Positions 7,563 to 44,351 of a DNA stretch of 64,000 nt are shown piece by piece. Below the pieces are notes generated by a model, which was given only the letters and a program-made list of their open reading frames with translations, did no database searches and was not told where the DNA came from. This stretch comes from Orobanche coerulescens (taxonomy: Eukaryota; Streptophyta; Magnoliopsida; Lamiales; Orobanchaceae): the NCBI GenBank assembly GCA_033398695.1, contig CM065801.1, positions 108,524,670-108,588,669 of the forward strand, in the 5' to 3' direction. Within the stretch, counting starts at the first letter, position 1, and each line of letters opens with the position of its first letter. A program made the position numbers and the translations under genes.

Positions 7563-7714
7563 AACATATCTGTAGATCAACTACCACATGATAATGATAA
7601 CAAATCTCGAACATCGACGTACAGTCCGAATGCTCATATGATCAATAACAATGATCAACCAATACATCACTGAGAATATCATCGACATGATAACTCTAAT
7701 ATTACCAACAAAGG
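7563..7714 (-). repeat. LTR A fragment, left of TR-GAG-2
   Basis: Matches LTR B from about 16817 (ACATATTTGTAGATCAACTA) onward. It is cut on the left by the Athila-like element and on the right by TR-GAG-2. The last five bases, AAAGG, are the left target-site duplication of TR-GAG-2. Confidence 0.88.
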
Positions 7715-8662
7715 TGTTGTTGCCTCAAATATTATCCGAAGTTAGATATTGCTGGAATGGTCGAGCAATAGCAAGTTGCGAGAGCACGTCTGAGGGAATG
7801 GAAATAACGCAAGATTTGTCGGGTTTGTTAGGCCCGAGTTTGAATGCTCTCGCGAGGTGTTATTAATAAGAATATGTTTGAGTACAAATATTAATGTAAG
7901 AATGCGATTACAATAAGTGTAAAAGATCCTAATTACCTAGCTCTTGAGCGAAGCTCTGCGTGTTCTTGTTCTCATTTCTGCCGACCGTATCAGGATTGAG
8001 AGGTGCTGAGAGAGAGAAAAGTCGAGAGATAGCTGTTGCCAAGAGTGAGAAAGCCAAGTAATGAGCTCAAAAACCAGAGAATCAAAGAGAGTCCTTTAGA
8101 GTCTCCCAAGTGTAGGCAGCCTTTTATTTATAGGAGCTGAGATGCCTTTTACTGACGGGCGATCGCCTTTCTTGTAATATAATAAGGGGCGATCGTCTTA
8201 TGTCACATGGGCTGTCTGCCTTGAAGTCCGTGGCTGCTACTGGCAGCCATCTGTGTGGTCCAATGAGGAGCATGCATGCTTCCTGCGTTGCTATCCCGGG
8301 CAGTCCCACTTGCACCTTTCGGCGGGTCTGTCGGTAGGTGAGAAGATGCTGACAGACTGTGGTCAACAATCCGTGTTCTGCGGCGCCTTTTCCAGATCTA
8401 CGCATGTGGGTCTCTGTACGAGCTTCGCCGATCGTCGACTGGACATGCTGGCCTTGCGTGGCAGGAGGCGGTCGTCATTGGCCGGGCACCATAGTCGATC
8501 GCCAAGTACCAAGAGACGATCGCCTTGGATGTCGATCGCTCGGCACTGGGTATTGACCTGGGACCCAAGATCGGATAATTCGCTTTGGTCTATCTGGCTC
8601 CGGATCGGTCGCCTGTCGTCTGTGCCGATCGCCTGTTGAGATGTATAATGCTCGACAGAACA
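7715..8662 (-). repeat. TR-GAG-2 3' LTR, 948 bp
   Basis: On the plus strand it runs TGTTGTTGCC... to ...CTCGACAGAACA. Reading on the minus strand, GCGATCGCC palindromes (about 8505-8540, 8187-8195, 8157-8166) lie upstream of a TATA box at 8125-8132. The 3' end of the LTR is at 7715. Confidence 0.87.
8125..8132 (-). promoter_or_regulatory. TATA box of TR-GAG-2 3' LTR
   Basis: Minus strand TATAAATA, about 25 bases downstream of a GGGCGATCGCC palindrome. Confidence 0.58.
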
Positions 8663-9426
8663 ATTGCCCCCCAGCTTGCTCCGATGTTGAAGACATGGGG
8701 CGAGGTGGTTCTTACTGGCGATCGTCGAGGATAAGGACGGGCGATCCGTTGAGCGGACTTTGGTTTTGGACTTGGGCGATCTGGTCGATTGGCGAGCTAT
8801 CTTTGGTCTTGTACCTGCAATAAACAATTTTGCCGATCCCTCGTAGAAACTTGATAGTTTCGTCACTGAGGAACCGTGCACAGTCGCAGAGTTCGATGGA
8901 CCGACTCTATGACCATGTCTTGTGCGCGAGCGACATTGTCTGTTTCGTGACTCATTTTGTTGTGAGGGTCCTCCGTTAGGCTGCGCCTCGCCTCGTATTT
9001 AAACGAAGGGTGTGCGGTCTTGGTCTGGAGGAGTCCTTGCGCGGGGCGTCGTCGGATGAGTCGACTCCACGCCCGCGGCTTGTTATCTCTTTTCTACCTC
9101 GGATCGTCATGTCAGATGGCAATCCTCGACGGTATGCGTTGAGACGGGGGTAGTGATGCATCGCATTGTCTGGGTCCATCAAGTTAGATGATGAACCTTT
9201 GAGGGCGGGCGAACGTGTCCACTGATTTATTTGGAGGGTCCTTCGACTACGCCCGCCTCGTATTTAAACGAAGGGCGAGCGATCTCAGCCCAAAGGGACC
9301 TTGCATGGCCTAATCAGTCGGTTCCATCGACCACCAGGACCATGGCTGCACTCTTCTACCTCGGATCGTCATGTAAGATGCCGATCGTCGACGGTGTACG
9401 TTGTGCAGGGGAGGCGATCTCGTGCC
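8663..9426 (-). other. Noncoding tail of TR-GAG-2 with PPT
   Basis: The purine tract is at 8663-8676 (plus strand ATTGCCCCCCAGCTT). Two copies of a block centred on GTATTTAAACG occur near 8995 and 9265. No gene seen. Confidence 0.7.
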
Positions 9427-10779
9427 TTAGTCCATCATGTTAGATAACGAACTATAGAGGGCGAGCGAGTCCTCCGTTGCGGATATGTTGCTTGATTTGG
9501 CGATCGGGTCGGAAGACTGGTGATCATCGTTCGGTCGTCGATCGCGCTGCCCATAGGTTGAGAAGTAACCTTTGCCTGGCCAGAAAGTCTGCGGCTTTGG
9601 CGCGGAAGATCGCGTAGGTTGGGGGAGGTCCTTCGTAAGATGCCTGAACATAGGCGAAAGACCATGGAATCCCCCTAGGACCGAGTATAGGGCGATCTCG
9701 TCGCTTATGGGCTCGCTGTTGAGGATGATCTCATCAACCCGGTCGATGTAGTCCGCGTCGGACTCTTCTTCTCCCTGCCTGATTTTCATCATGCGATGGG
9801 GACCTTCCAGCCGAGCTACCTTGGCAGCGAAGTAAGCTGTGAAGCTGTACGCCAGTTGATCAAAGGAGTTGATGGATCGTGGCGGTAATGAGGTGTACCA
9901 CCTGTGGGCAAGATCGTCCAGCGTCAGTGGGAACATTCGGCATCTGGTTGCGTCTGATGCCCCACACCCGGTCATATAGATTCGGAACTTGCTCAGGTGA
10001 GTCTTGGGGTCCAACCTCCCCTCGTACAAAGGTGTTTGCGGAGGAGCGATCCTACGCTGGATGAGGGCAAGCTCGATGTGGACCGCGAGCAGCTCGCTCG
10101 GCTCGGCGATCTTGTTATTGGCGCCTGCCCCAGATTCTAGGAGCGCCTTCATGTCGTCGAGCTGGCGTTGCATCGCGACCATCGCTGTAGCTTGGTTGCT
10201 CGTGGTTCGGCTTCCGGAGCGGGAGCCGAGGCGATCGTGTACCGATCTCCTGACTCCGCGGTCGCCGACCTCAGTTCTTTGGCGAGGAGGAGCCAGATGG
10301 CTGGCCTGCCTTCTGGGAGTCGGATATGCCGAACTTCTAGTGATGGAGTCGAGCTCCTTCGTCTCGTGGCTGGGGCCAGATTGCCCCGGTCGCCATGATG
10401 GGTCGCTGCCTAGGCGGCTGAAAACAGAGGTGCCCCGGCTTGCGAGCGCCTCTTGTTGTGAATCGAGGCTTCCTGGCGATCGCTGGGACATTAGCCCCTT
10501 GAACTTTCGTTTGGTCACGCGGTGGATGGCCGAGGGGGTTATAGCGGGCGGTGCGTCGAAAGCTCTCCGTCGCTCCCGTAGGATGGCCAGGGCTCCTTCG
10601 ATCTGTTCTGCGGTTTGGAACTGATCGAGCGAGAGGCTTGGGCCGTCCCTCGGGGGCGAGATCGAGAGTTTCGGACCGCGGCAGCTACCCTCCGCCATAG
10701 GCTGGGGCTCGGATTGAGACGGAATGAGGCGTCCGGCGGATCGGCCAGCGGCTTTCTTCGATGTGGAGGCAGAGGTCAT
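9427..10779 (-). CDS. gag: Retrotransposon Gag-like protein, 450 aa, intact
   Basis: Uninterrupted ORF from ATG (MTSASTSKKAAG) to a stop after LSNMMD. The N-terminal half (residues 1-195) is Pro/Ser/Arg-rich low complexity. Residues about 197-217 (QATAMVAMQRQLDDMKALLE) look like a short amphipathic or coiled-coil helix. Residues about 250-375 carry the plant Ty3/gypsy Gag core, with LDPKTHLSKFRIYM, LTLDDLAHRWYTSLPPRSI, FDQLAYSFTAYFA, a QGEEESDADYIDRVD segment and ILNSEPISDEIALY, as in the Retrotrans_gag family. The C-terminus is short and basic; there is no CCHC knuckle and no protease. Such proteins assemble the retrotransposon particle in the cytoplasm. The start is at the LTR-proximal end after a 129-bp leader. 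An open gag with no pol is the definition of a TR-GAG element. The decayed homologue at 942-2302 supports reality of the frame. Confidence 0.88.
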   Translation of the reverse strand: MTSASTSKKAAGRSAGRLIPSQSEPQPMAEGSCRGPKLSISPPRDGPSLSLDQFQTAEQIEGALAILRERRRAFDAPPAITPSAIHRVTKRKFKGLMSQRSPGSLDSQQEALASRGTSVFSRLGSDPSWRPGQSGPSHETKELDSITRSSAYPTPRRQASHLAPPRQRTEVGDRGVRRSVHDRLGSRSGSRTTSNQATAMVAMQRQLDDMKALLESGAGANNKIAEPSELLAVHIELALIQRRIAPPQTPLYEGRLDPKTHLSKFRIYMTGCGASDATRCRMFPLTLDDLAHRWYTSLPPRSINSFDQLAYSFTAYFAAKVARLEGPHRMMKIRQGEEESDADYIDRVDEIILNSEPISDEIALYSVLGGFHGLSPMFRHLTKDLPQPTRSSAPKPQTFWPGKGYFSTYGQRDRRPNDDHQSSDPIAKSSNISATEDSLALYSSLSNMMD

Positions 10780-10908
10780 GATTCTGAAAGTTTTCTTTGA
10801 AGCGCAGTGAGTGTCACTTCAAGTATATACCCCAGAGAATAGTGAGTGTTCTTCGAGACGGTAGGAATAAAAATAAGGGTTAAGATTCCCCTTCCTTCTA
10901 GCGCCAAT
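10780..10908 (-). promoter_or_regulatory. TR-GAG-2 leader and PBS
   Basis: Short leader between 5' LTR and gag. The PBS is next to the LTR at about 10889-10908 (minus strand begins ATTGGCGCTAGAAG), identical in core to TR-GAG-1. Confidence 0.7.
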
Positions 10909-11811
10909 TGTTGTTGCCCGAAACATTATCCGAAGATAGATATTGCTGGAATGGATGGACAACAAACAAAATGCGAGAGCACATCCGAGGGAATGGAAAT
11001 AACGCAAGATTTACCGGGTTTGTTAGGCCCGGGCTCGAATGCTCTTGCGAGGTGTTATTAATAAGAATACATTTGAATACAAATATTAATGTAAGAATGC
11101 GATTACAATGAGTGTAAAAGATCCTAATTATCTAGCTCTTGAGAGAAGCTCTGCGTGTTCTTGTTCTCGTTTCTGCCGACCGTCTCAGGATTGAGAGGTG
11201 CCGAGAGAGAAAAAGTCGAGAGATAGCTGTTGCCAAGAGTGAGAAAGCCAAGTTATGAGCTCAAACACCAGAGAATCAGAGAGAGTCCCCCAGAGTCTCC
11301 CAAGTGTAGGGAGCCTTCTATTTATAGGAGCTGAGATGCCTTTTACTGATGGGCGATCGCCTTTCTTGTAATATAATAAGGGGCGATCGTCTTATGTCAC
11401 ATGAGCTGTCTGCCTTGAAGTCCGCAGCTGCCGCTGGCAGCCAGCTGTGTGGTCCAATGAGGAGCTTGCACGCGTCCTGCATTGCTGTCCTGGGCGGTCC
11501 CACTTGCACCTTTCGGCGGATCTGTCGGTAGGTGAGAAGATGCTGACAGGCTGTGGTCAACGATCCATGTTCTGCAGCGCCTTTTCCGGATCTGCGCATG
11601 TGGGTCTCTGTACGAGCTTCGTCGATCGTCGACTAGATGTGCTGGACTTGGCCGGGCACAAGAGTCGATCGCCTTGGATGTCGATCGCTCGGCACTAGGT
11701 CTTGACCTGGGTCCCGAGATCGGCTAATCTGCTTTGGTCTATATGACTCCGGCTCGGTCGCCTGTCGTCTGTGCCGATCGCCTGTTGAGATGTATAATTC
11801 TCGACACAACA
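10909..11811 (-). repeat. TR-GAG-2 5' LTR, 903 bp
   Basis: Plus strand TGTTGTTGCCCG... to ...CTCGACACAACA. It matches 7715-8662, with some segments missing relative to it near 11640-11660. GCGATCGCC motifs at about 11350-11390 and 11666-11780; TATA at 11319-11326. It should drive gag transcription toward lower coordinates. Confidence 0.87.
11319..11326 (-). promoter_or_regulatory. TATA box of TR-GAG-2 5' LTR
   Basis: Minus strand TATAAATA, just downstream of palindromic GGGCGATCGCC at about 11350-11360; the likely gag promoter. Confidence 0.6.
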
Positions 11812-11816
11812 AAAAG

Positions 11817-11990
11817 ATCAACGAGAACCGAGAATACCATCAACATGATAACTCCGACACGATCAACAAAGGATCAACAATAACTGAGAATACCATCAAC
11901 ATGATAACTCCGACACGATCAACAAAGGATCAACAATAACTGGGAATACCATCAACAAGGTAGACTCCAAATGATCAACAATAATGGATC
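11817..11990 (-). repeat. 56-bp minisatellite in LTR A
   Basis: Roughly three tandem units containing GATCAACAAAGGATCAACAA and ACTGAGAATACCATCAAC. The same array occurs with different copy number in LTRs B, C and D. TR-GAG-2 inserted at its left edge. Confidence 0.8.
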
Positions 11991-14600
11991 TCAAAGAAAT
12001 AACCCCGACTGTCGAAACATACCCCCCGGGTGTATGAACAACCATTCGTGAACCGTCGAACATATCCAATCATACATGGAACTATGAACGACCAAACGGT
12101 ATGGCTCAAAGATGGACGTCATAGTACGCCCGATCCGAATATGTTTCAGTGCACATATTCACCCCGTATACGGAATCCAGGATATACGTGGGACAATGTA
12201 CCTAATTAGCCTCAACGAACTACGCCTCGTGTGCACAGACCTTCACGGAAAATATTCACACATGACTATATATGTGCCCGGCTAAAAATCCTACACAATA
12301 TCCAATCGGAATGAAGAAATGACTCCAGATATGTCACGATGCAACATGACAACGAAACTCAAAGAAACACATATCCAATAAGGATCAAAAGACTCACCGA
12401 AGTGAACAACAACAGACTGATAATGAAAAGTCGACACGACCAATCAATATTCAAAACAATAATCCTGGGATCACAAACCCCAAATGATAATCCATACGAT
12501 CAACAATATCAGACAACAGTTCTGGGATCAACATCCCTCATTGAGACGATCAACACAACCATTAATACCAACAATAGTCCTGGGATCAACATCTCTCAAC
12601 GAACAACCAATACGAATCTCAATATACGAAGCCTCAAAGTACAACATATACAACAACTCAACATAATAATTATCTCATAACTGAACAATACATAAATTAC
12701 CTCAAAGCCGAAGACAACATCCTTTCCACGAACAACAACCCTGAACGAATACACAGTTATACAAATAATCTCAAATAAGGTACCATACATTCAATACCAA
12801 TAAACCTTTATCCCGATACTTATATCATCACGATAACTATCTCGATATCCGATATTCTATATCCTTGACCACAGATAACTCACGTTTTCCTTGAACACAA
12901 TTAAATCATATACCTTATGATTTAATACAACCAGAGCACGATATACAAACCATTATTCCGACAACTTACATTTCTGACAACATTGCTATACGAATTATAA
13001 ATGAAATCAAAACGAAACCATTCATCAAATATTATACACTGAACAAGTAGAAACTTGCCTCGATACCGATACCACGAAACTGTTACCAAAATCCATTGCC
13101 TTCGTCCACGAGCTCCTCAGCCCCGAACAAAGCGATCTACAAACTCTTCGACCTCGACTGCAACACAACGGCCATAATCCACGATCAAAACATCACAACC
13201 TATTGCAATAACCGATTAACACACATTCGATAAAATCAATAACCAGCATACCCAACCGACAAACTCAACGGTTCAACGAAACCTCGACCATATACATAAA
13301 ACCAAATAATCCAACTCAACAAGTATGAACTCTTATCCACAATACAAGCCGTAACTCGATGATCACAAATAACAAGAAATTACCCATCAACAAACACAAT
13401 GGTTCTACAATATCCCGATTAAATACAAATCCAAACAACCCTAACCAATCAAACACGAACTCAAAACCACAATACGATTCCACAATTTGAAGATCATATC
13501 AATAATCAATTTAACCAAGTGCCAAAGCATTGCCGATTCCACATTCAATCTTAAATACGATTACAAGTTTCCTCCTTGTACATTCATAATATAAGCTAAT
13601 TACCGATTATCATCACCAATCCGGACGATCCGATTAATTCAACATTATAGATAACCATATTCCAAAGGTTTCAAATAATTCTATTATCCGAATTGAACAC
13701 TTGTTCAATACGTATAAATTCTCAAACTCAAAAGTGAATCATAATCTTATCAAACCCGTAACTATATTCGTATTCCTATACGAATATTGTATCAAAATAC
13801 ATAACTTAGTTTTAGATATGAATATTCCATATTCATATCCAAAACACCAACATCACTTAAACATGTTCATCATTTCATATAATCCAAGAATTCCTTAAGA
13901 ACACAACTTATTCCGACATCACATTCAAAATCTCCAATACGACATAATATGATGTGTTCTAACATCTAAACAATCCTTATTCACAATTCAAGGTGTATAT
14001 AATCATGTTCTTCAACATATATACTTCTCATAACATCATGAATCGCAACAAACCACCAAGAACATCGAGAATACTACGATTCCATAATCATAACAATATA
14101 ATCAAGGCATTTGATCATCAATTCATTATCTTCCCTTAACAAAATTCTCGTATATACCAAGAATCATCAAAACAATATCAATTCAACCATCATTCATATG
14201 AAAACATGTAGAATATTCCAAGTTCTACTCATTGAGACATTTCATCGAACACTTTGAAGGCATAGTCCAATTCAATCGATTATTCAAAGAAATACTCGAA
14301 TTCGTTCCACAAAACTTCAAGAGAATTGAATGATTACGAGTTTACAATCAAGTTCAATCAACAATCTGAATCAAAACGAAGCAAATCGGCCAAAACACCA
14401 AGAAACCTCAAGAACATCTAAAAACCAAAAGTTTAGGTGTTCTTACCTTCGATCCGGGTGGAAGATGATGTTAATCCATGATCCCAACTTCCAAAACATG
14501 TTGCCATAAGATGTTCTTACTCAAATCCATCCATTTTGCTGAAGAAATCGCGAAGAAACGGAGAGAAAACATGAAAATGGCCGGATGGCTCGGTCCAGGC

Positions 14601-14610
14601 CCATAAATAG
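14601..14610 (-). promoter_or_regulatory. TATA-like box of LTR A
   Basis: Minus strand CTATTTATGG, just downstream of the palindrome cluster; the equivalents in LTRs B and C read CTTATTTAAG and CCTATTTAAG. Confidence 0.5.
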
Positions 14611-14611
14611 G

Positions 14612-15260
14612 CGAGACCTGCCGGACCATTACGGCTGCTATCGGCCAGGGCTTATGACCGTAACCGGCCAGGGCTACCTCACTGCCCGATTCGTCCGGCA
14701 CCCTTACGGCCGTAACCGTCCGTGGCTTACGTATGTAACCGGCCGTGGCCTACCCTACTGCTCAGTTTGGTCGACACCCTTATGTACATAAACGGCAGCT
14801 GGCTTACGTACGTAACTGGCCCTTACGGCCGTAACCGGCCACAGCCTTACATACGTTATTGGAAAGTCCATGCGAGTCACTGCCGACCATGCTCGGCCAT
14901 CCCTGCGAGTCACTGCTGACAATGCTCGGCCACTACAGGTCCTCTCGGCCACGACTCGGCCAGCCGCCCCGTAACGTACGTAACACTTAATCTGTTGCGT
15001 ACGTAATACGTACGTTGACTTGCTACAATATTATACTCGTATTACGTATGTAATACACCCTGTATAGCGTACGTAAATCTATCCGTTGACTCACCTCTCC
15101 ACATCCGCGCCGAAAGCCGCCGACCACAGGCCCCACTATCCGATCACAACTCGGTCCTATCTGATTCCTCTTGTTACATACGTAATGCCTTATGCATAAC
15201 ATTCGTAAAGCGTATAACTTAGCGTATGTTATCTCAACATCTTAACGTACGTTAAGGGCT
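14612..15260 (-). repeat. TACGTA and TTACGGCCGTAA palindrome cluster, U3 of LTR A
   Basis: A dozen or more short palindromes or near-palindromes: TTACGGCCGTAA followed by CCGGCC, TTACGTACGTAA, and GCGTACGTAATACGTACG. They begin about 300 bases inside the LTR start and end at the TATA-like box. Confidence 0.85.
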
Positions 15261-15562
15261 CTATACTTAGCCAAAATCCAACTGTTCCTGTCTGACGTCT
15301 CGACGTACAAAATACAAACATACGGCATACTGAATACACATACTGAATCCAAAAATATTCTCATACGGTATACCTGATATCCAAATCAGTTCAACCTGAT
15401 ACAACATATCCTGAATATATCTGTCAATCAAAAACGATTATCACACCAGTATAAATGTCTCGGTTCTCAATTTATTTTATCCATGCTATATAGATACGAA
15501 ACTATACAGTATATCTCAGATATAATAATGCGAAAAATTATACGGAAAATCCGGGTATTACA

Positions 15563-15950
15563 ATACTACCCCCCTTAAAATAAGTTTCGTCCTAGAAACT
15601 TGCGACCTGTCACCAACAACAGATAAATCCAAAACTTTCCAACTCATCACAAAACAATCAAGTGTCGCCACAAGCGAATAACCAAACCAATATACTTACA
15701 GGTGCATGAAGCCGATGATCTCCCGTGATACTAGCACACGACTCCCACATGAAGTCTCAATACAATCAAAACACACGAATATCACAAATAGCAATTTGAA
15801 AAGAATCTCAAAAAATTTGGAAACTCCAAAAATCGATTTGACTCAAAAGTCAAAAAACTCATTTTCAAAAGCCACGCAACTACCATACCGGTAGAGCCAC
15901 ATAATACACACGCCTAGGTTTCACAAAACCCAAGCTCCGATACCATCTTC
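15563..15950 (-). other. 388-bp internal domain between LTR A and LTR B
   Basis: The PPT is next to LTR A (plus strand ATACTACCCCCCTTAAAA) and the PBS next to LTR B (plus strand GCTCCGATACCA, 15934-15945; minus TGGTATCGGAGC, like the complement of initiator-Met tRNA). A TTTCG...CGAAA motif near the PPT resembles the post-pol sequence of chromovirus E (60781-60795). No coding sequence. Gag and pol appear to have been deleted, leaving only cis signals. Confidence 0.85.
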
Positions 15951-16929
15951 TGTAACACCCCCAAAACCATCTGGGATATTACAGCGCCGTGGGGCTCGTA
16001 GGAACCCACTGTGCTAAAAATCACATGTAACCATTTAAAAATGCCAAAAGGCCAATGACGGTAATATTTTAAATACTCAAATATCTTCAAAAACATAGTT
16101 CTCAAATACCGTCATAAAATACCATTTGAAAATACAAGGCGAAATGCCAAATCTCGACAGTTCAAAATGTACATTAAGCCACCCCTTAAACGTATCGATA
16201 AAATAGTTAGGATGAAGAGTTTAACGAAATAACCCAAGTTCGCAAAGTGCCAAAAGGCCATTTTAAAATACACACACGCAGCGGATAAAAATATCGAAAA
16301 GCCATTTGAAAACACACTCGCAGCGGATAAAATCACAGTTCAAAAATACACATTTGCAGCGGAAATAAAACAACCAGAAATAAATACTCAATTACGAGCC
16401 ACAGCCAGTATCACCTGGGAAGCTCACCCCTTCACGACCGCTACTAGCTCGATCTACGAGTACCTAAAAATAAAGACCATGAAGGGGTCAGCCACAATAC
16501 TCAACAATGATATCGATCACATCATCATAAATAATTACATACCAATGTAATAACGAAGTAAGAATACTACCGATGTAATCTTACCGTTATAACCTTACCA
16601 ATCCATAACAGATCAATCCTTAACATATTCCACATTCCGCATTCTCAATTGACGAAATGAACTCAACAACAATTATCTGTACTGTATTCCAAAAATACCA
16701 AGAATTCTCAAAACATCATCATAACTCATAAGTGTGGAAATAATCCAATCTGTGCCAACTCCTGTCCATAGGATTACACAATCAAATCTCAACATGTATA
16801 AACCAATAATACACAACATATTTGTAGATCAACTACCACATGATAATGATAACAAATCCCGAACATCGACGTATAGTCCGAATGCTCATACGATCAATAA
16901 CAATGATCAACCAATACATCACTGAGAAT

Positions 16930-17070
16930 ATCATCGACATGATAACTCCAATATGATCAACAAAGGATCAACGATAACCGATAATACCATCAACATGATA
17001 ACTCCGACATGATCAACAAAGGATCAACAATAACTGGGAATACCATGAACAAGGTAGACTCCAAATGATC
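16930..17070 (-). repeat. 56-bp minisatellite in LTR B
   Basis: About two units of the array that has about three to four units in LTRs A, C and D. Confidence 0.7.
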
Positions 17071-19690
17071 AACAATAATGGATCTCAAAGAAATAACCCC
17101 GACTGTCGAAACATACCCCCCGGGTGTATGAACAACCATTCGTAAACCGTCGAACATATCCAATCATACATGGAACTATGAACGACCAAACGATATGGCT
17201 CAAAGATGGACGTTATAGTACGCCCGATCCGAATATGTTTCAGTTCACATGTTCACCCCGTATACGGAATCCAGGATATACGTGGGACAATGTACCTAAT
17301 TAGCCTCAATGAACTATGCCTCGTGTGCACAGACCTTCACGGAAAATATTCACACATGACTATATATGTGCCTGGCTAAAAATCATACACAATATCCAAT
17401 CGGAACGCAGATATGACTCCAGATATGTCACGATGCAACATGACAACGAAACTCAAAGAAACACATATCCAATAAGGATCAAAAGACTCACCGAAGTGAA
17501 CAACAACAGACTGACAATGAAAAGTCGACACGACCAATCAATATTCAAAACAACAATTCTGGGATAACAAACCCCAAATGATAATCCATACGATCAACAA
17601 TCTCAGACAACAGTTCTGGGATCAACATCCCTCATTGAGACGATCAACACAACCATTAATACCAACAATAGTCCTGGGATCAACATCTCTCAACGAACAA
17701 CCAATACGAATCTCAATATACGAAGCCTCAACGTACAACATATACAACAACTCAACATAATAATTATCTCATAACTGAACAATACATAAATTACCTCAAA
17801 GCCGAAGACAAAATCCTTTCCACGAACAACATCCCTGAACGAATACACAGTTATACAAATAATCTCAAATAACGTACCATCCATTCAATACCAATAAACC
17901 TTTATCCCGATACTTATATCATCACGATAACTATCTCGATATCCGATATTCTATATCCTTGACCAAAGATAACTCACGTTTTCCTTACAATTAAATCATA
18001 TACCTTATGATTTAATACAACCAGAGCACGATATACAAACCATTATCCCGACAACTTACATTTATAACAACATTGCTATACGAATTATAAATGAAATGAA
18101 AACGAAACCATTCATCAAATATTATAAACTGAACAAGTAGAAACTTGCCTCGATACCGATACCACGAAGCTGTTACCAAAATCCATTGCCTTCGTCCACG
18201 AGCTCCTCAGCCCCGAACAAAGCGATCTACAAACTCTTCGACCTCGACCGCAACACAAAGGTCATAATCCATGATCAAAACATCACAACCTATTGCAATA
18301 ACCGATTAACACACATTCGATAAAATCAATAACCGGCATACCCAACCAACAAACTCAACGGTTCAACGAAACCCCGATCATATACATAAAACCAAATAAT
18401 CCAACTCAACAAGTATGAACTCATATCCACAATACAAGTTGTAACTCGATGATCACAAATAACAATCAATTACCGATCAACAAACACAACAGTTCTACAA
18501 TATCCCGATTAAATACAAATCTAAACAACCCAAACCAATCAAAAACGAACTCAAAACCACAATACGATTCCACAATCCGAAGATCATATCAATAATCAAT
18601 TTAATAAAGTGCCTAAGCATTACCGATTCCACATTCAATCTTAAATACGATTACAAGTTTCCTCCTTGTACATTCATAATATAAGCCAATTACCGATTAT
18701 CATCACCAATCCGGACGATCCGATTAATTCAACATTATAGATAACCGTATTCCAAAGGTTTCAAATAATTCCATTATCCGAATTGAACACTTGTTCAATA
18801 CGTATAAATTCTCAAACTCAAAAGTGAATCATAATCTTATCAAACTCGGAACCATATTCGTATTCATATACGAATATTGTATCAAAACACATAACTAAGT
18901 TTTAGATATGAATATTCCATATTCATATCCAAAACACCAACATCACTTAAACATGTTCATCATTTCATATAATCCAAGAATTCCTTAAGAACACAACTTA
19001 TTCCGACATCACATTCAAAATCTCCAATACGACATAATACGATGTGTTTTAACATCTAAACAATCCTTATTCACAATTCAAGGTGTATATAATCATGTTC
19101 TTAAACATATATACTTCTCATAACATCATGAATCTTAACATACCACCAAGAACATCGAGAATACTACGATTCCATAATCATAACAACCTAATCAAGGCAT
19201 TTGATCATCAATTCATTATCTTCCCTTAACAAAATTCTCGTAAATACCAAGAATCATCACAACAATATAAATTCAACCATCATTCATACGAAAACGTGTA
19301 GAATTTTCCAAGTTCTACTCATTGAGACATTTCATCGAACACTTTGAAGGCATAGTCCAATTCAATCGATTATTCAAAGAAATACTCGAATTCGTTCCAC
19401 AAAACTTCAAGAGTATTGAATGATTACGAGTTTACAATCAAGTTCAATCAACAATCTGAATCAAAACGAAGCAAATCGACCAAAACACCAAGAAACCTCA
19501 AGAACATCCAAAAACAAAAGTTTAGGTGTTCTTACCTTCGATCTGGGTGGAAGATGATGTTAATCCATGATTCCAACTTCCAAAACATGTTGCCATAAGA
19601 TGTTCTTACTCAAATCCATCCATTTTGCTGATGAAATCGCGAAGAAACGAAGAGAAAACATGAAAATGGCCGGATGACTCGGTCGAGGCC

Positions 19691-19700
19691 CTTAAATAAG
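19691..19700 (-). promoter_or_regulatory. TATA-like box of LTR B
   Basis: Minus strand CTTATTTAAG immediately downstream of the palindrome cluster. Confidence 0.5.
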
Positions 19701-24820: not shown

Positions 24821-24829
24821 CGGGACCTG

Positions 24830-31308: not shown

Positions 31309-31312
31309 GTGC

Positions 31313-31323
31313 AAGTGGGAGAT
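31313..31323 (+). promoter_or_regulatory. copia-1 polypurine tract
   Basis: AAGTGGGAGAT directly before the 3' LTR TG; the same sequence serves copia-2 on the minus strand (about 35989-35999). Confidence 0.8.
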
Positions 31324-34500: not shown

Positions 34501-35988
34501 TGTTGGAAAGTAAAACGCAGCGGAAGCAAAGTTTTGGAAAGTTGATGATAGCGTTTTACGCATCTACGAGCATTAGATCTATTTAGGCATGCTAATTAAT
34601 TAATTACTAAGACTAATAAGCAATTTAAATATTATTTATTATTTATTAATTAAATATGTTGATAAATAAAATATCCTAATATAGATCCAAGATCATAGGA
34701 TACTACCTTTTGAAACATGTTGGTTACTTCCGTCTTGATCGCCTTGTATTTGTACCTTTAGATCTTCTAGAGTATGATCCGCCTTGAACCGGACGTTGTG
34801 TGGGCAACGAGCTACCGAATCTTGTTTGGACACCTATGGATCGGCCGAAATCTATATCTCACAATTCTCGATTTTCTTTTCTTCAAGTAATTCCGATATG
34901 TAGCAAGAATTAAAGTGTTCTCTCAATTGTGGAATCAAAGACACAAGTCAAGATCCACAATTAAACACTTAGAAGAAAAATCGAAATCCCTTGTGTAAGT
35001 ATATGATAAAAATCGGCCAACACTCCATATGTCCTATTTATAGGCTCTTGGACTACTACTAGGGATCTAAAGGAGGATTATGGAAGGACTCCCAATTAAT
35101 TCATCTTACCTTAGTAGGACTCTTCCAAATATATGATGAATCTATTAATATAAACTTAGTCCACTAAAAAATTGATATTGCACTTCCTACCAAGATCCCA
35201 AATTACGAAATTGGGCTCCTTATTAAATATATTATTTCCCGTGTTTAAGATATCGAATGTCCATTAATTAAATATAAGCTACTGACAACTTTAATTAATT
35301 AATATCTTATCCAAGAGCAATACCACTCGAACCTTATTATTATATCGGAATTAAATCCACCTGCAGGGTTTAATATAATAATCATTATCAAGCTCCTCAA
35401 GGGGACATCATCAACCCGCACGAGTTGGGACACGATTTCTAGTAATAATAATATTTGTCATATAAACAATATTATTGCCCAAGATACGAGGCTTATTGAG
35501 TCGATCATTTTGACTCTCGTCTATGATAAATCAAAGCAATAATTATTATAAATACACAATTAAATATTATATACGTAGAATTAAAAAATAAAAATTATCC
35601 GAGATTTACGTTCTTCTTACAGTCAGTACAGAAGACACTATCTCACCTCAATCCTGTTCAATGTATGCAAATACGCTAATGTATGCTAATAGTCAAAACC
35701 AACTATTCTCAAGCATACACTACAACCCTTTATATAATTTGTCTAATAATTATATAGGTTGTGAACTATTATATTATTTTATAAGGCACCGATAATGTGA
35801 TCTTCCGTGTGACACCAACACACCACATTATCCACAATATAAAATAATTAGACATTTCATTTGCATAACCATAACGTGAATAAATATGCAAATCATGTGA
35901 TTAAATGTAATTAATATCTTCATAGGTAGTAATAGGGAAATTAGGTAATACAAGCATAAAGTATGCTTTGCAGTATACAATCCTAACA
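34501..35988 (-). repeat. copia-2 3' LTR, 1488 bp
   Basis: Minus strand TGTTAGGATTG... to ...CTTTCCAACA. AT-rich, with no coding sequence. The PPT (minus TAAGTGGGAGAT) lies at 35989-36000. Confidence 0.88.
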
Positions 35989-36003
35989 ATCTCCCACTTA
36001 TAC

Positions 36004-39000
36004 TCAAAGCAATGCTGCCATACACCGTAATCCCATTCCTTCCACATGCCTTTCAAAAAATTTTGAAGGTAGGCCTTTCGTGAAAGGGTCAGCAAGATTA
36101 TCTTCCGATGCAACCCTGGCTACAACTACATCTCCTTCCTTTACGAAGTGTCGTATGATGTGGTACTTGCGGTTGATATGTTTACTTGCCTGATGGGCTC
36201 GTGGTTCCCTTGAATTTGCGACTGCACCAGTATTATCACAATAAAGTGTAATACCCTCTGGCAAATCGGGAATCACATCTAAGTCCTGCAGGAAGTACAT
36301 GAGCCACACTGCCTCCTTGGCTGCCTCAGAGGCTGCCACGTACTCGGCTTCCATGGTAGAGTCCGAGATGCATTTCTGTTTCACACTCCTCCAACTAATG
36401 GCTCCACCTCCCAGTCTAAACACATAACCGGAAGTAGACTTGGACTTTTCTTTGTCCGATGAAAATCGAGTCGGTAACCCACCTAAGTGTGTCGTCTGAT
36501 TTATATACAAGCATGTACTCCCAAATTCCTTCTCGTACTTGAGTATGTGCTTTACAAAGAATCCAGTGTCACAGTCACGGTTTGACTGATATCTAGCAGC
36601 CATGCCCACGGCATGACAGATATCTGGTCTAGTGCAAAGCAGAGCATACTTGAGACTTCCCACAGCAGATGCATAAGGGACCATCTTCATGTCATCTATC
36701 TCCTTTTGTGTCTTAGGACACATGTTCTTAGATAGTTGAATTCCATGTTTGTAAGGTAGAAAACCTTTCTTGGAATTCTTCATGCTAAACCGCTTCAGCC
36801 CTGTATCGATATAGGATGCCTGGGATAAGCACAACATCCTCTTCTTCCGATCACGAAAGATCCTGATTCCAAGGATGTGTCTTGCTTCTCCTAGATCCTT
36901 CAGATCGAACTGCTCAGATAGCCATACACGTACGTCCGACAACTCTTTCACGTTGTTTCCAATCAGAAGAATATCGTCTACATACAATACAAGAAACACC
37001 AACACGTTTCCATCGCATTTCTTATACACATAACTCTCACTCGGACATTGGACGAATCTATTTGACTGGACAACTTCATCAAAACGAGTTTTCCAAGATC
37101 TAGATGCTTGCTTAAGTCCATAAATGGATTTCTTAAGTTTCCACACCAAGTGCTCTTCTCCTTCAGGAATGAATCCCTCTGCTTGGCGCATATAGATTTC
37201 ATTGTCTAGACTCCCATTCAAGAATGCAGTCTTGACATCCATCTGCCAAATCTCCAGATCCAAATGCGCAGCTATAGCTAAAAGAATTCGGATTGACTTA
37301 AGCATGGCTACCGGCGAAAAGGTTTCATCATAATCGATACCCTCTTTCTGAGTGTAACCTTTTGCAACAAGCCTCGCTTTGAAGGTTTCAACCTTCCCGT
37401 CACGTCCTTTATTTCGCTTGTAGACCCATTTACTCCCAATGGCCTGTACACCATCAGGTAGTTCTACTAGCTCCCACACTTGATTGGAATCTATAGATCC
37501 CATTTCTGATTCTATTGCTACTTGCCAGGAGTCAGCATCTTTATCTTGGATTGCCTCCTTATAGGTCCAGCGATCTGATTCATCTTCGCCTGGGATTGAG
37601 TCCGAAGACTTTCCCATGCCTATGAATCGTTCGGGCTGACGAACAACCCTCCCACTAGGACGAGGCAAATCCTGAGTTGGTGTAAAAGTATCAGAATCGA
37701 TACGTGGTGCAGTGTCAGTTGGCGCTTGTACGATTGGTATAGACAGAGTCTCGCCCCTCAGCTCTTCCAGAATTATCTCGCTCATGGGCTTGTGACTAAT
37801 TATCTAATCCTCTTCCAGAAATCGGGCATTGGTGCTAACAATGACCTTTTGATCCTGGGGATTATAGAACAAGCCACCCTTCGTTCCCTTAGGGTATCCT
37901 ACAAACACTCGTACTTCTGTACGAGATGCCAACTTATCAGCTTCCTTATTCAGCACATGTGCTGGAGTACCCCAAAATCCGAACATGTCCTAGACTGGGC
38001 TTACGCCCACTCCACAGTTTTGTGGGTGTTTTTGGAACTGATTTCGAAAGCACCAGGTTTAGAATGTACGCCGCTGTTTCTAAGGCATATCCCCAAAACG
38101 AAATAGTTAAATCTGAATAACTCATCATTGATCTAACCATTTCTAAAAGAGTCCTATTCCTTCTTTCAGCCACACCATTTTTTTGTGGAGTTCCTGGCGC
38201 GGTGAGCTGGGACGAAATCCCCTCATTCGCCAAGAAATCCAAAAACTCTGCACTAAGGTATTCTCCACCACGATCAGATTGTAGCGACTTGATACTCTTC
38301 CCATGACGCTTTTCCGTTTCAGCCTTGAAGTCTCTGAACTTGTCAAAAGCTTCAGACTTACGTCGCATCAAATATATGTATCCATATCTCGAATAATCAT
38401 CTATAAATGTGATGAAGTATTCGAAACCACCCCTAGCCTGGATATTCATTGGACCACATACATCCGTATGAACCAATTCTAACACATTATGAGCACGGTT
38501 TCCCTTGGTTTTAAAAACCCTTTTGGTCATCTTACCTTCCAGACAGGATTCACAAATTGGAAATGACTCAACTTGGAGATCATCCAATGGGCCATCATCT
38601 ACCAATCTTTGAATCCTTCCAAGGTGTACATGTCCTAACCGTAAATGCCACAGATATGTTTGGTTTATGCTTGAAGGTTCTTTTCTATTTTTAGGTTTAG
38701 ACAAAGAGTTAGGTGATTTATGCATAAGAGTTTGTGCAGTATTAACGACATATAGTCCATCATTAAAAGTACCTTTGCAAATATATTCACCGCTTCTTTT
38801 CTTAATAATGGCATCATCATCAAAAGAAACTGAATAACCATCGCATTTTAATTTAGAAACCGAAATTAAATTCATTCTAAAATCCGGTACTAATAATACA
38901 TTATTGATAACTAGTAATTTATTATTAATCTTCAACTGCACGACTCCCACTGCAACAGCCATAAGCCTGGAATAATTGCCCCAGTTGATGGTAATCTCGC

Positions 39001-39944
39001 CCGCACTAAGCTGCTTGGTCACCTGAAAACCATGCGAGTCAAAGAAAACATGATCAGTGGAGCCTGAATCAACTATCCACGGAGTGGAAGAACAAGCTGC
39101 CAAACATGTTTTGACTACTAGTGCACGAGACATACCTTTCTTAAGAGCAGGGCAGTCCGCTTTAAAATGTCCTTTCTGACCGCACTTGTAGCACTTTCCC
39201 TTTGGCTTTTTGTTCGCCTTGGGGTGAGGAGCCTTGCTTTTCACCTTAAGGGTTGCCACTTGCTTCTGGCCAACCTTCTTCTTCTTCTTTCCCCATTTTG
39301 GTTTGGAAGAAGTAGCACCAGTTTCCGCAAGAATCTGATGATAACCTTGTTTGAAGAGACCTTTAGAAGACTGAAGCTCTGTCAGAAGTTCCGCCAAACT
39401 ATATATCCTACGGTTCATATTGTAGTTAAGGCAGAACTGCTCAAAGCTTCAGGGTAAGCTGCCTAAGATAATATCGACTTGCGTTTCCGTATCGATAGCA
39501 GCCCCCAGAATGCTCAGTTCGTTCAAATAAGACATCATTTTTAGAACATGATCCCTCACTGGAGTCCCTTCAGACATTTGGGTTGTCATCAATACCCTCA
39601 TTGCATTTTGTCTAGCCGCCCGGTTCCGATGACCAAACATCTCGGTGAGACTTTTCATCATTTCCGCGGCCGAGCCCATCGTCTGATGCTGATGCTACAA
39701 TACATTTGTCAGTGAAGCCAAAATGTAACAGCGAGCCATCTCATCAGACTTTTTTCCATTTTCGGAATTCAGCCAACTCTTCGGAAGTGGCATCCGGTTC
39801 TGGTTCTAGAGGGCTCTCCTCGATTAAGACAAATTTATGCCCCTCAGCAGTCAGGACAATGTCAAGATTTCTTTTCCAATTGGCAAAGTTAGTGCCATCA
39901 AGTTTATTTTCTTTGAGAATAACAGCTAGTGGATTGAAAGACAT
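36004..39944 (-). pseudogene. copia-2 Gag-Pol polyprotein with three frameshifts and a stop
   Basis: Gag begins at 39944 (MSFNPLAVILKENKLDGTNF) and shifts frame near 39744 and 39448, where SFEQF...NYNMNRR continues. In the 490-residue frame starting at 39418, the CCHC knuckle CYKCGQKGHFKADC is at residues 76-89, protease VDSGSTDH around 115-122, the HHCC region near 257-292, and the integrase triad at D319, D382 and E418 (D-35-E). A one-base insertion near 37975 shifts the frame. The next segment reaches FLEED and hits TAG (plus 37804-37806), then stays in frame into RT: YVDDILLIGN (residues 268-277 counted from 37785), QASYIDTGLKRF, and RNase H CDNTGAVANSREPRAH and DPFTKGL. The first RNase H Asp motif is lost to an indel near 36465. 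Confidence 0.88.
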
Positions 39945-41334
39945 CTGAGATAAAAATTAAAAACATCCGTCACATAATGCATAGCAAAATATATCGAAAA
40001 ACCTCGAAACACAATATATATGCTAGCAAACAACACCTCAAAAAATCCGCACATGCAAGCCACGATCGTGTGGACGTTTACACACATTTCTCAAGTAGAG
40101 TTTTACGTCTTTAATTTTACTATCTAGTCAAATACATTATGAGAAGTAAAATTAATAGTTAGTTCCTCTTGGCCATGTATTAATTAACATAGACTCTGAT
40201 GGGGAGCTTATTAATTAATACACCTAAGTGAATACCATAATTTAACATCCTTAAAATAATATCTTTTAAGTAATAGTCCTACAGATGGAGAGGTCCTATC
40301 ATAAAAAATAATATTTACCTTATGTTATCATTTTGAAATTTAAAACTAGTGAACCTATAATTAGCACATCCGATATGGAGGAAGACTCTAATGTCAACGC
40401 GCATGCTAATTACTTCACATTTTAAATTAATTATGGAGGCCAATTTGATTTTATTTAAAATTAAATCAATTTAATCACTTAGTTATTTTAGTCTTAAGGT
40501 TTTTAATTTTCTCGTCCTAACATGCAAGGAAACATATCACGCATACATCCATACATGCCATACATCAAAACAATAAAAACCAAAAATAAAGCATGGATAA
40601 TTAATTATCCAATTATCATGGTCTTCTTCCTTGAGTTGAATCCGAGAAAATCTTCGACTCGATCTCTCCCACTGAATCAAGCATCTCGTCGCTCCTCCCC
40701 GGTCGGGCCGTGGATTTTCAAAATTAAAATTTCACTTTTATGCAAAATTAATTACATAAAAAAAATTTAATTTTAAATCCTGACTCCCCAGCGGACGCAA
40801 CGAACGGCGGCGAAACGGACCGGACCAAAAGCTGGGCGGCCCGGCCAGGCTGGCCAAGGCGCCGGACAGTGCCGCCCGCTGCAGCGGCCGCAGGCTGCTC
40901 ATGGCCGTGTCTTTGCGTGGCGGCCTTTGCTTAGCTTCAAGCCTTGTGATCTGGCGATCCGGTTACGCTCTATTTCTTCGCGATTCCGTCATTTTCCGAA
41001 TTCGATTACAATTTTACACAAAATAAATACATCGAAATTACATCAAGATTTACAAGAAAAAATAAAACCACCTAGAACTACCCGCGGATTTTCTCACGGG
41101 AAAACCATTACATGCCTAAAAAAAACGGGCCAAACCAACAATTGCATAATTAAGATAAATAAATAAATAAATACACCATTCATATAAACCATGATAATTG
41201 GATCATATCACCTGCAAGAACACATCTAGCAAAATATTACAACATCAAAATATTAGAATATTTAAATTGCTATCAATTAATCACTAATATTAATTAAAAT
41301 AGCAAAAGCCTAAAAATCCGGCTATGATACCAAT
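39945..41334 (-). other. copia-2 leader and PBS
   Basis: Noncoding leader. The PBS, at 41320-41334 next to the 5' LTR, reads ATTGGTATCATAGCC on the minus strand. A short GC-rich block lies at 40785-40930. No gene seen. Confidence 0.75.
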
Positions 41335-42822
41335 TGTTGGAAAGTAAAACGCAGCGGAAGCGAAGTTTGGGGAAGTTGATGATTGCGTTTTACGCATCTA
41401 CGAGCATTAGATCTATTTAGGCATGCTAATTAATTAATTACTAAGACTAATAAGCAATTTAAATATTATTTATTATTTATTAATTAAATATGGTGATAGA
41501 TAAAATATCCTAATCTAGATCCAAGATCATAGGATATTACCTTTTGAAATGTGTTGGTTACTTCCGTCTTGATCGCCTTGTATTTCTACCTTTAGATCTT
41601 CTCGAGTATGATCTGCCTTGAACCGGACGTTGTGTGGGCAACGAGCTACCGGATCTTGTTTGGACACCTATGGATCGGCCGAAATCTATATCTCACAATT
41701 CTCGATTTTCTTTTCTTCAAGTAATTCCTATATGTAGCAAGAATTAAAGTGTTCTCTCAATTATGGAATCAAAGACACAAGTCAAGATCCACAATTAAAC
41801 ACTTAGAAGAAAAATCGAAATCCCTTGTGTAAGTATATGATAAAAATCGGCCAACACTACATATGTCCTATTTATAGGCTCTTGGACTACTACTAGGGAT
41901 CTAAAGGAGGATTATGGAAGGACTCCCAATTAAGTCATCTTACCTTATTAGGACTCTTCATAATATATGATGAATCTGTTAATATCAACTTAGTCCACTA
42001 AAAAATTGATATTGCACTTCCTACCAAAATCCCAAATTACGAAATTGGGCTCCTTATTAAATATATTATTTCCCGTGTTTATGATATCGAATGTCCATTA
42101 ATTAATTATAAGCTACTGACAGCTTTAATTAATTAATATCTTTTCCAATAGTAGTACCACTCGAACCTTATTATTATATCGGAATTAAATCCACCTGCGG
42201 GGTTTAATATAATAATCATTATCGAGCTCCTCAAGGGAACATCATCAACCTGCACCAGTCGGGACATGATTTCTAGTAATAATAATAATTATCGTATAAA
42301 CAATATTATTGTCCAAGATACGAGGCTTATTGAGTCGATCATTTTGACTCTCACCTATGATAAATCAAAGCAATAGTTATTATAAATACACAATTAAATA
42401 TTATACACTTAGAATTAAGAAATAATAATTATCCGAGATTTACGTTATTCTTACAGTCAGTACAGAAGACACTATCTCACCTCGATCCTGTTCAACGTAT
42501 GCAAATACGCTAATGTATGCTAATAGTCAAGACCAATGATTCTGAAGCATACACTACAACCCTTTATATAATTTGTCTAATAATTATATAGGTTGTGAAC
42601 TATTATATTATTTTATAAGGCACCGATAATGTGATCTTCCGTGTGACACCAACACACCACATTATCTACAATATAAAATAATTAGACATTTCATTTGCAT
42701 AACCATAACGTGAATAAATATGCAAATCATGTGATTAAATGTAATTAATATCCTCATAGGTAGTAACAGGGAAATTAGGTAATACAAGCATAAAGTATGC
42801 TTTGCAGTATACAATCCCAACA
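41335..42822 (-). repeat. copia-2 5' LTR, 1488 bp
   Basis: Same boundaries and length as the 3' LTR; scattered substitutions only in the parts compared. Confidence 0.88.
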
Positions 42823-44351
42823 GCTCACCCCTTCACGACCGCTACTAGCTCGATCTCCGAGTACCTAAAAATAAAGCCCACGACGGGGTCAGCCACAATA
42901 CTCAACAATGATATCAATCACATCATCATAAATAATTACATACCAATGTAATAACGAAGTAAGAACACTACCGATGTAATCTTACCGTTATAACCTCACC
43001 AATCCATAACAGATCAATCCTTAACATATTCCACGTTCCGCATTCTCAATTGACGAAATGAACCCAACAACAATTATCAAGAATTCTCAAAACATCATCA
43101 TAACTCATAAGTGTGGAAATAATCCAATCTGTGCCAACTCCTGTCCATAAGATTACACAATCAAATCTCAACATGTATAAACCTATAATACACAACATAT
43201 CTATAGATCAACTACCACATGATAATGATAACAAATCCCGAACATCGACGTACAGTCCGAATGCTCATACGATCAATAACAATGATCAACCAATACATCA
43301 CTGAGAATATCATCGACATGATAACTCCAACATGACCAACAAAGGATCGACGATAATCGAGAATACCATCAACATGATAACTCCGACACGATCAACAAAG
43401 GATCAACAATAACTGAGAATACTATCAACATGATAACTCCGACACGATCAACAAAGGATCAATAATAACTGAGAATACCATCAACAAGGTAGACTCCAAA
43501 TGATCAAAAATAATGGATCTCAAAGTAATAACCCCGACTGTCGAAACATACCCCCTGGGTGTATGAACAACCCGTCGTAAACCGTCGAACATATCCAATC
43601 AAACATGGAACTATGAACGACCAAACGGTATGACTCAAAGATGGACGTCATAGTACGCCTGGTCCGAATATGTTTTAGTGCACATGTCCACCCCGTATAC
43701 GGAATCCAGGATATACGTGGGACAATGTACCTCATTAGCCTCAACGAACTATGTCTCGTGTGCACAGCCCTTCACGGAAAATATTCACACATGACTATAT
43801 ATGTGCCCGGCTAAAAATCCTACACAATATCCAATCGGAATGCAGATATGACTCCAGATATGTCACGATGCAACATGACAACGAAACTCAAAGAAACACA
43901 TATCCAATAAGGAACAAAAGACTCACCGAAGTGAACAACAACAGACTGACAATGAAAAGTCGACACGACCAATCAATATTCAAAACAACAATCCTGGGAT
44001 CACAAACCCCAAATGATAATCCATACGATCAAAAATCTCAGACAACAGTTCTGGGATCAACATCCCTCATTGAGACGATCAACACAACCATTAATAACAA
44101 CAATAGTCCTGGGATCAACATCTCTCAACGAACAACCAATACGAATCTCAATATACGAAGCCTCAACGTACAACATATACAACAACTCAACATAATAATT
44201 ATCTCATAACTGAACAATACATAAATTACCTCAAAGCCGAAGACAACATCCTTTCCACGAACAACATCCCTGAACGAATACACAGTTATACAAATAATCT
44301 CAAATAACATACCATCCATTCAATACCAATAAACCTTTATCCCGATACTTA
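42823..44351 (-). repeat. LTR D, right part (truncated at 44351)
   Basis: Resumes with GCTCACCCCTTCACGACC and stays collinear with LTRs B and C up to CCCGATACTTAT. There a CACTA terminus begins. The remaining 2.6 kb of LTR D, including its U3, would lie to the right of the window. Confidence 0.85.
43325..43500 (-). repeat. 56-bp minisatellite in LTR D
   Basis: About three units of the array seen in LTRs A-C, with a few substitutions. Confidence 0.72.

What the first reader, a model, noticed from the sequence alone, without database searches (positions are those of the whole stretch)
7563..44351. Tandem array of LTRs 4.67 kb long separated by 388-bp non-coding internal domains
Three internal segments of exactly the same length (15563-15950, 20618-21005, 33633-34020), each with PBS and PPT, lie between head-to-tail giant LTRs with a 5055-bp period. 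Known non-autonomous classes are short throughout (TRIM) or have large internal regions (LARD); here the LTRs are twelve times longer than the internal part and form a shared-LTR array. Identical internal length argues the deletion came first and the array grew by unequal recombination, which may be an early step to satellite DNA.
Basis: partly seen in the sequence, partly recalled or inferred. Interest (0 to 1): 0.75.

Follow-up and report, generated by a model that had tools for sequence, protein, structure and literature searches.

The report
Tandem long-LTR non-autonomous plant retrotransposon array
A plant genome segment carries at least three head-to-tail copies of a gene-less retrotransposon with very long ends and a tiny middle; the arrangement is real, but both the tandem form and the long-end, short-middle form have been described in plants before.

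Summary
On the minus strand lie three 388-bp internal domains (15563-15950, 20618-21005, 33633-34020), each with a PBS-like motif beside one LTR and a PPT-like run beside the other, alternating with four copies of one long LTR. The only uninterrupted complete copy, LTR2, is 4667 bp. LTR copies differ by about 3-7% and three of the four carry their own nested insertions, so this is hardly one unit assembled twice. Neither array end is in the window.
No coding sequence was found in the unit. Its PBS, PPT tail and parts of its LTR resemble a chromovirus-type gypsy element in the same window, the likely kind of helper.
The novelty claim is weak. Shared-LTR tandems are common in plants (Tekay-enriched in rice), and Medicago Mtr77 combines 2.2-kb LTRs with an internal of about 200 bp. 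Nothing here supports a step towards satellite DNA. Unequal LTR-LTR recombination is the likeliest origin, not proven.

The parts
7563..7714 (-). LTR1, left fragment (LTR position 865 onward)
   Evidence: 95.4% identical to LTR2 16815-16966; left edge abuts foreign sequence
7715..11811 (.). Nested gypsy-type element inside LTR1; LTRs about 7715-8663 and 10909-11811, gag ORF 9427-10818 on minus strand
   Evidence: LTR pair; TGTTG...CAACA ends and near-TSD AAAGG/AAAAG as I read them; Pfam Retrotrans_gag E 5.5e-8
11812..15562 (-). LTR1, remainder
   Evidence: 95.05% identical to LTR2 over 3737 bp
15563..15950 (-). Internal domain 1, 388 bp: PBS side at 15950, PPT side at 15563
15951..20617 (-). 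LTR2, complete and uninterrupted, 4667 bp, shared by internals 1 and 2
20618..21005 (-). Internal domain 2, 388 bp
21006..25304 (-). LTR3, left part
25305..33193 (.). Nested Ty1-copia element in LTR3; ends TGTTAGG...CCCAACA; repeated end pieces 25305-25424/31324-31443 (100%) and 25554-25697/33050-33193 (98.6%); TSD CATGG/CACGG (one mismatch)
   Evidence: RVT_2, SH3 and integrase domains on ORF 28930-30324
33194..33632 (-). LTR3, right part (first 5 bases are the duplicated target)
   Evidence: 95.9% to LTR2 20181-20617
33633..34020 (-). Internal domain 3, 388 bp
34021..34500 (-). LTR4, left part
34501..42822 (-). Nested Ty1-copia element in LTR4; LTRs 34501-35988 and 41335-42822 (p = 0.040); perfect TSD GCTCA
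   Evidence: RVT_2, integrase and zinc knuckle
42823..44353 (-). LTR4, next part, cut off at LTR position about 1968 by a CACTA-like terminus
   Evidence: 91.4% to LTR2 16421-17918; junction
50803..53718 (-). Subfamily-2 relative: first part of its LTR (about 3.64 kb in all by coordinates), TGTAACACC start
   Evidence: 71-77% identity to LTR2 in three blocks; sequence
53719..63067 (+). Chromovirus-type gypsy element nested in the subfamily-2 LTR (LTRs 53719-55933 and 60815-63067); perfect TSD CTATC; likely kind of helper
63068..63797 (-). Subfamily-2 LTR, remainder
   Evidence: 71% identity to LTR2 20317-20617; TGTAATATCC end
63798..64000 (-). Subfamily-2 internal domain, PPT side (203 bp before the window ends), homologous to the array internals; no match to the resident pol C-terminus

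Best explanation
[quoted passage not shown] Its RNA is presumably packaged, reverse-transcribed and integrated by the proteins of an autonomous chromovirus that shares its PBS and PPT ends. One copy inserted, and homologous recombination between its long LTRs on sister chromatids or homologues (unequal crossing-over) then gave a head-to-tail array with shared LTRs, of which at least three internals and four LTRs remain. Later insertions of gypsy, copia and CACTA-like elements broke it up. Shown: the anatomy, the shared LTRs, no detected coding, the likeness to a resident chromovirus, and homologous short-internal sequence in a diverged relative. Inferred: trans-mobilisation, lineage name, single founding insertion, and unequal crossing-over as the growth step.
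For: Alternating LTR-internal-LTR with one LTR between neighbouring internals and matching termini at the six bordering LTR ends. The PBS-like TGGTATCGGAGC also follows the resident chromovirus 5' LTR. The PPT tail matches that element at 33 of 38 aligned bases, and the PBS-side stretch (bases 5-77) at 50 of 76 aligned columns (score 47, maximum of 300 shuffles 38). LTR stretches match it too: 62% over 310 bp (E 3e-16), and 65% over 160 bp including the LTR end and PBS (E 2e-8). Coding not found: seven resident retroelement ORFs against the unit 15563-20617 gave no hit below E 1.1; no sense-strand ORF of 100 aa in LTR2 or in the examined parts of LTR1 (11870-15562) and LTR3 (21006-25301), none of 60 aa in the three internals. 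A relative outside the array has the same short-internal tail. In the piece held by LTR1-3 the changes unique to LTR1, LTR2 and LTR3 are 51, 35 and 46 of 135 variable sites, near a star, as expected if the copies arose close together in time. Tekay elements are enriched among rice LTR tandems (PMC11899658 section 10), and LTR-LTR recombination is a standing proposal for such arrays.
Against: Neither array end is visible, so one outer TSD pair could not be tested. A near-star would also follow from a concatemeric insertion or from separate members joined later. No hybrid LTR or conversion tract was detected (21 run tests, smallest p 0.091), although power is low. Two oddities do not fit a simple equal-age array. 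Internals vary less than LTRs (12 of 387 against 287 of 4653 sites, Fisher 0.013; outside CG/CHG 5 of 339 against 137 of 3892, 0.041), though piece by piece this holds against three of five LTR pieces (0.0013, 0.017, 0.022) and not against two (0.18, 0.11). And the gypsy inside LTR1 has a more diverged LTR pair (75 of 895) than LTR1 and LTR2 have (138 of 3655, Fisher 5e-8). The Tekay name is recalled, not tested by a tree, and the chromodomain hit (21.7 bits) is below its Pfam cut-off (25.1). Coding was tested only against resident ORFs and by ORF length.
Confidence: 0.65

Rival explanations
1. The tandem was made during retrotransposition (template switching, read-through transcripts from a one-LTR circle or an existing tandem, or recombination of cDNA with a resident copy) and integrated as a multimer or into an old copy.
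For: Shared-LTR complex elements by template switching are reported in Triticeae (PMC1950507, abstract). PMC11899658 leaves both routes open for rice (Discussion). Near-equal divergence of the copies fits one event.
Against: Three units with 4.7-kb LTRs would need an RNA of about 15 kb or more (inference). PMC7215508 argues that the compactness of Cassandra makes particle capacity less limiting for a concatenated cDNA (passage), an argument that does not help an element this long.
Confidence: 0.2
2. Separate insertions of family members were brought together by LTR-LTR recombination with loss of the DNA between them.
For: Lower variation in the internals than in the LTRs would fit members that evolved separately under constraint on packaging and priming sequences. 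The Wukong authors propose recombination between intact elements.
Against: No unit stands out: LTR distances are of similar size between pairs. Repeated joining of co-oriented members is less simple than copying one.
Confidence: 0.12
3. Assembly artefact: one or two real units repeated by the assembler.
For: Long near-identical repeats are a classic cause of mis-assembly; no reads were available here.
Against: Copies differ at 2-7% of sites, and three of four LTRs have their own nested insertions, with 5-bp duplications at both copia insertions (one perfect, one with a mismatch).
Confidence: 0.03

Closest known systems
Tandem LTR-retrotransposons of rice and other plants (Morales-Diaz et al. 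2025, PMC11899658)
   Same: Alternating internal regions and shared LTRs; gypsy and especially Tekay elements over-represented in rice; authors favour one insertion for the two loci studied in detail
   Different: The 28 rice cases selected by hand all encode protein domains (section 10). The pipeline has a class without domains but required internals of at least 500 bp (passage), so a 388-bp internal would have been passed over
Mtr77, LARD of Medicago truncatula (PMC2533021)
   Same: Long LTRs (2191 bp) around a degenerate internal of about 200 bp in a 4668-bp element; non-autonomous and abundant (passages)
   Different: LTRs half as long; no tandem form mentioned (find for 'tandem' gave 0); no sequence comparison made here
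Cassandra and Wukong TRIM arrays (PMC7215508, PMC4528315)
   Same: LTR-internal-LTR tandems with shared LTRs and no gag-pol; recombination or unequal crossing-over proposed
   Different: Small elements; Cassandra LTRs carry 5S RNA sequence (no Rfam match at gathering scores in this window)
Resident chromovirus-type gypsy at 53719-63067
   Same: PBS motif, PPT tail, LTR termini and parts of the LTR
   Different: LTRs of about 2.2 kb and an internal region of about 4.9 kb that holds pol

Membership tests
Tandem shared-LTR LTR-retrotransposon | Alternating internals and LTRs with one LTR between neighbours | tested here: met
Tandem shared-LTR LTR-retrotransposon | Array starts and ends with an LTR and is flanked by one TSD | not testable with these tools
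   Both outer LTRs are cut off inside the window; search of the own genome did not complete
LARD | Non-coding LTR element over 4 kb | tested here: met
   Two LTRs plus internal would be 9.7 kb; no coding found. Size rule as used in PMC2533021
LARD | Large internal (core) domain without coding | tested here: not met
   388 bp
TRIM | Short LTRs and short whole element | tested here: not met
   LTR 4667 bp
TRIM | Almost no internal domain beyond PBS and PPT | tested here: met
   388 bp, no ORF of 60 aa on the sense strand
Tekay/Del chromovirus derivative | PBS, PPT tail and LTR sequence shared with a chromovirus-type element | tested here: met
Tekay/Del chromovirus derivative | Lineage placement by reverse transcriptase tree of the partner | not tested
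   No reference lineage set at hand; the name is recalled. RVT_1 and Tf2-1 SH3 domains found, Chromo at 21.7 bits below cut-off 25.1
Satellite DNA | Long homogenised array | tested here: not met
   Three units seen (array ends outside the window), LTR copies differ by p 0.028-0.066, no significant conversion tract in 21 tests

The most novel reading that the evidence does not exclude
A long-lived class of helper-dependent retrotransposons in which the LTR is nearly the whole element: 3.6-4.7-kb LTRs around an internal of a few hundred bases, kept through subfamilies about 71-77% alike, so that the long repeated LTRs make tandem, shared-LTR arrays a normal state of the family, a form that pipelines requiring 500-bp internals do not see.
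Probability: 0.2. Interest if true: 0.45.

Novelty: new member of a known kind. Interest (0 to 1): 0.27.

Why it matters
It extends the known size imbalance of non-autonomous LTR elements (LTR twelve times the internal) and indicates that the minimal internal was inherited, not made by the array. If the family is common in its genome, it is a clean test of whether long LTRs alone promote tandem formation, since there is almost no internal sequence to recombine, and it points to a blind spot (internals under 500 bp) in one published tandem search.

Tried and rejected
Assembly duplication: rejected as the main reading because copies differ and three of four LTRs carry their own insertions. Protein genes hidden in the long LTR: no sense-strand ORF of 100 aa in LTR2 or the examined parts of LTR1 and LTR3 (LTR4 was not examined at that length). 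Two 156-aa open frames at 22419-22889 and 43739-44209 are on the opposite strand; the first has no Pfam match, the second was not scanned. RNA genes in the LTR (as in Cassandra): no Rfam match at gathering scores in the window. Gene conversion between units: 21 run tests, smallest p 0.091; the 152-bp piece was not among them. An earlier count said 24 tests; 21 is the right count, and entry 1 has some junction coordinates that entry 2 corrects. Hybrid LTR2 as a trace of crossing-over: the 954-site piece held by all four LTRs has 9 two-against-two sites (5, 2, 2) and the 152-bp piece has 2 (1, 1), too few. Host name: two protein searches listed the best 120 of 2425 and of 7972 hits, mostly plant retroelement proteins where named; none listed was near-identical. 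Host unknown, a flowering plant by inference. Literature: ten full-text searches, most hits seen only as listings. That I found no report of LTRs this long around an internal this short in tandem rests on these alone.

Rate-based dates were not given: the host and its substitution rate are unknown.
Full report
What is there. A self-comparison of the window shows a head-to-tail array; the first two internals start 5055 bp apart. Read on the minus strand, the unit is an LTR retrotransposon with almost nothing inside. The LTR runs from TGTAATACCC to GGGTGTTACA. The internal then begins GAAGATGGTATCGGAGC (TTGG in the third copy where the others have TCGG) and ends CTTATTTTAAGGGGGGTAGTA, plus one T in the first copy, just before the next LTR. 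All three internals are 388 bp. The only complete, uninterrupted LTR (LTR2, 15951-20617) is 4667 bp, 12.03 times the internal. That the PBS-like motif matches plant initiator Met tRNA is recalled, not tested.

The map. LTR1 7563-7714 and 11812-15562; internal 1 15563-15950; LTR2 15951-20617; internal 2 20618-21005; LTR3 21006-25304 and 33194-33632; internal 3 33633-34020; LTR4 34021-34500 and 42823-44353. The gaps are nested elements: a gypsy-type element in LTR1 (7715-11811, near-TSD AAAGG/AAAAG as I read the ends), a copia element in LTR3 (25305-33193, TSD CATGG/CACGG) and another copia in LTR4 (34501-42822, perfect TSD GCTCA). Internal 3 starts 13,015 bp after internal 2; less the copia and its target copy this is 5121 bp, so the 5055-bp period is exact only between the first two. 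LTR1 breaks off on the left at 7563. LTR4 breaks off at 44353 beside TACTACGCCACAAATGG, which resembles the end of a CACTA transposon. That likeness is recalled: no transposase domain was found in the 11 of 26 listed ORFs scanned there, and no matching other end lies in the window. So neither end of the array is seen, and three units is a minimum.

Is it an artefact? Divergence between copies (p) is 0.018-0.023 for the internals and 0.028-0.066 for LTR pieces. Three of four LTRs have their own insertions. A repeated single unit would not look like this, though reads were not available.

Relation to a chromovirus. A gypsy element with RVT_1, RNase H, Tf2-1 SH3 and a weak Chromo match (21.7 bits, cut-off 25.1) lies at 53719-63067. 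Just inside its 5' LTR it has TTTATGGTATCGGAGC, and just before its 3' LTR GGGACGAAACTTATTTTTAGGGGGGG. The array internal matches these: 33 of 38 aligned bases at the PPT side, and 50 of 76 aligned columns at the PBS side (score 47, maximum of 300 shuffles 38). With the PPT tail removed, the internal no longer matches the last part of the chromovirus (score 18, shuffle mean 18.7), which has an open frame up to 35 bases before its LTR. Parts of the LTRs also match (62% over 310 bp, 65% over 160 bp). The likely reading is a derivative that kept the cis-acting ends and lost gag-pol, and that uses chromovirus proteins in trans; the last point is inference.

The short internal is probably older than the array. 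A relative lies at 50803-53718 and 63068-64000, split by that chromovirus with a perfect CTATC target duplication. Its LTR is about 3.64 kb and 71-77% identical to the array LTR in four matched blocks. The 203 bp of its internal that fall in the window align to the array internal (131 of 200 columns; score 109, maximum of 300 shuffles 47; with the shared tail removed, 71 against a maximum of 61) at about the same distance from the LTR. The resident pol C-terminal frame has no hit there better than E 9. The window ends before its PBS, so its full internal length is not known.

No coding found. Seven resident retroelement ORFs compared with the unit gave no hit below E 1.1 (best against the relative 0.022). 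There is no sense-strand ORF of 100 aa in LTR2 or in the examined parts of LTR1 and LTR3, and none of 60 aa in the internals. Rfam gave no match at gathering scores in the window.

How the array grew. In the piece held by LTR1-3 (2263 ungapped sites) 135 sites vary, with changes unique to LTR1, LTR2 and LTR3 of 51, 35 and 46, and 3 three-way sites, close to a star. In the two pieces held by all four LTRs, two-against-two sites split 5, 2, 2 (954 sites) and 1, 1, 0 (152 sites). Twenty-one run tests found no conversion tract (smallest p 0.091). The copia in LTR4 has the same LTR divergence (60 of 1484) as LTR3 and LTR4 have from each other (85 of 1958; Fisher 0.73), so the array was formed not long before that insertion, if rates are equal. 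Unequal LTR-LTR recombination soon after one insertion fits best; concatemeric insertion and joining of separate insertions are not excluded.

Two results against a simple equal-age picture. Internals vary at 12 of 387 sites and LTR pieces at 287 of 4653 (Fisher 0.013); outside CG and CHG contexts 5 of 339 against 137 of 3892 (0.041). Taken singly, the internal is lower than three LTR pieces (p 0.0013, 0.017, 0.022) but not clearly lower than two (0.18, 0.11). These p-values treat sites as independent and are not corrected for several comparisons. And the gypsy inside LTR1 has a more diverged LTR pair (75 of 895; 37 of 665 outside CG/CHG) than LTR1 and LTR2 have (138 of 3655; 71 of 3056), although the insertion should be younger than the LTR that holds it. 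In transversions alone the gap is smaller (21 of 902 against 34 of 2264 in one LTR1-LTR2 piece) and was not tested. Different methylation and composition, or later homogenisation of the LTRs, could explain it; I could not decide.

What is known. PMC11899658 (abstract, sections 10 and 13, and passages read) describes tandem LTR elements sharing LTRs as common in plants, 266 in a rice pangenome, enriched in Tekay, with the mechanism left open between recombination and complex insertion; its search required internals of at least 500 bp. PMC7215508 (passages) reports Cassandra arrays with at least 12 LTR copies and cites at least 4600 three-LTR structures for BARE1 in barley. PMC4528315 (section 13 and passages) reports Wukong tandems with three to seven LTRs. 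PMC1950507 (abstract) proposes template switching. PMC2533021 (passages) lists Mtr77 with 2191-bp LTRs, total 4668 bp and an internal of about 200 bp. So both halves of the finding have precedents; the combination and the LTR size are what is added, as far as my ten searches show.

Verdict. The satellite suggestion has no support here.

Noticed in passing
7715-11811: Gypsy nested in LTR1 has an LTR pair more diverged (75 of 895) than the LTR that holds it is from LTR2 (138 of 3655); rate difference or homogenisation of the array LTRs not resolved.
   Followed up: partly
15563-15950, 20618-21005, 33633-34020: Internals vary about half as much as the LTR pieces taken together (12 of 387 against 287 of 4653 sites).
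   Followed up: partly
14703-14840, 19731-19929, 24912-24961; 63100-63480: Clusters of short repeats with ACGT cores (CTTACGGACGTAACC in the array LTRs) or similar palindromes (TTACGTACGTAA, TAGCGTGCGCTAA in the relative) several hundred bases inside the LTR 5' end; possibly promoter or enhancer repeats.
   Followed up: no
11807-11981, 16924-17075, 21980-22190, 43300-43507: A 56-bp tandem repeat inside the LTR is present in 2.7 to 3.8 copies in the four LTRs.
   Followed up: no
25420-25753: Palindrome-like inverted repeat (90%) within the nested copia of LTR3, like a foldback or MITE insertion.
   Followed up: no
44354-50802: CACTA-like terminus (TACTACGCC, and CACTACGCC at 44759) followed by gene-like sequence; one ORF (50326-50589) has a sub-threshold Reticulon match (19.8 bits, cut-off 31.8), perhaps a captured gene fragment.
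   Followed up: partly
1-4052: Left-most LTR-like pair 1-816 / 3224-4052 (95.6%) and an inverted 74% match of 171-2165 to 11535-9497, so the left-edge element is related to the gypsy nested in LTR1.
   Followed up: no
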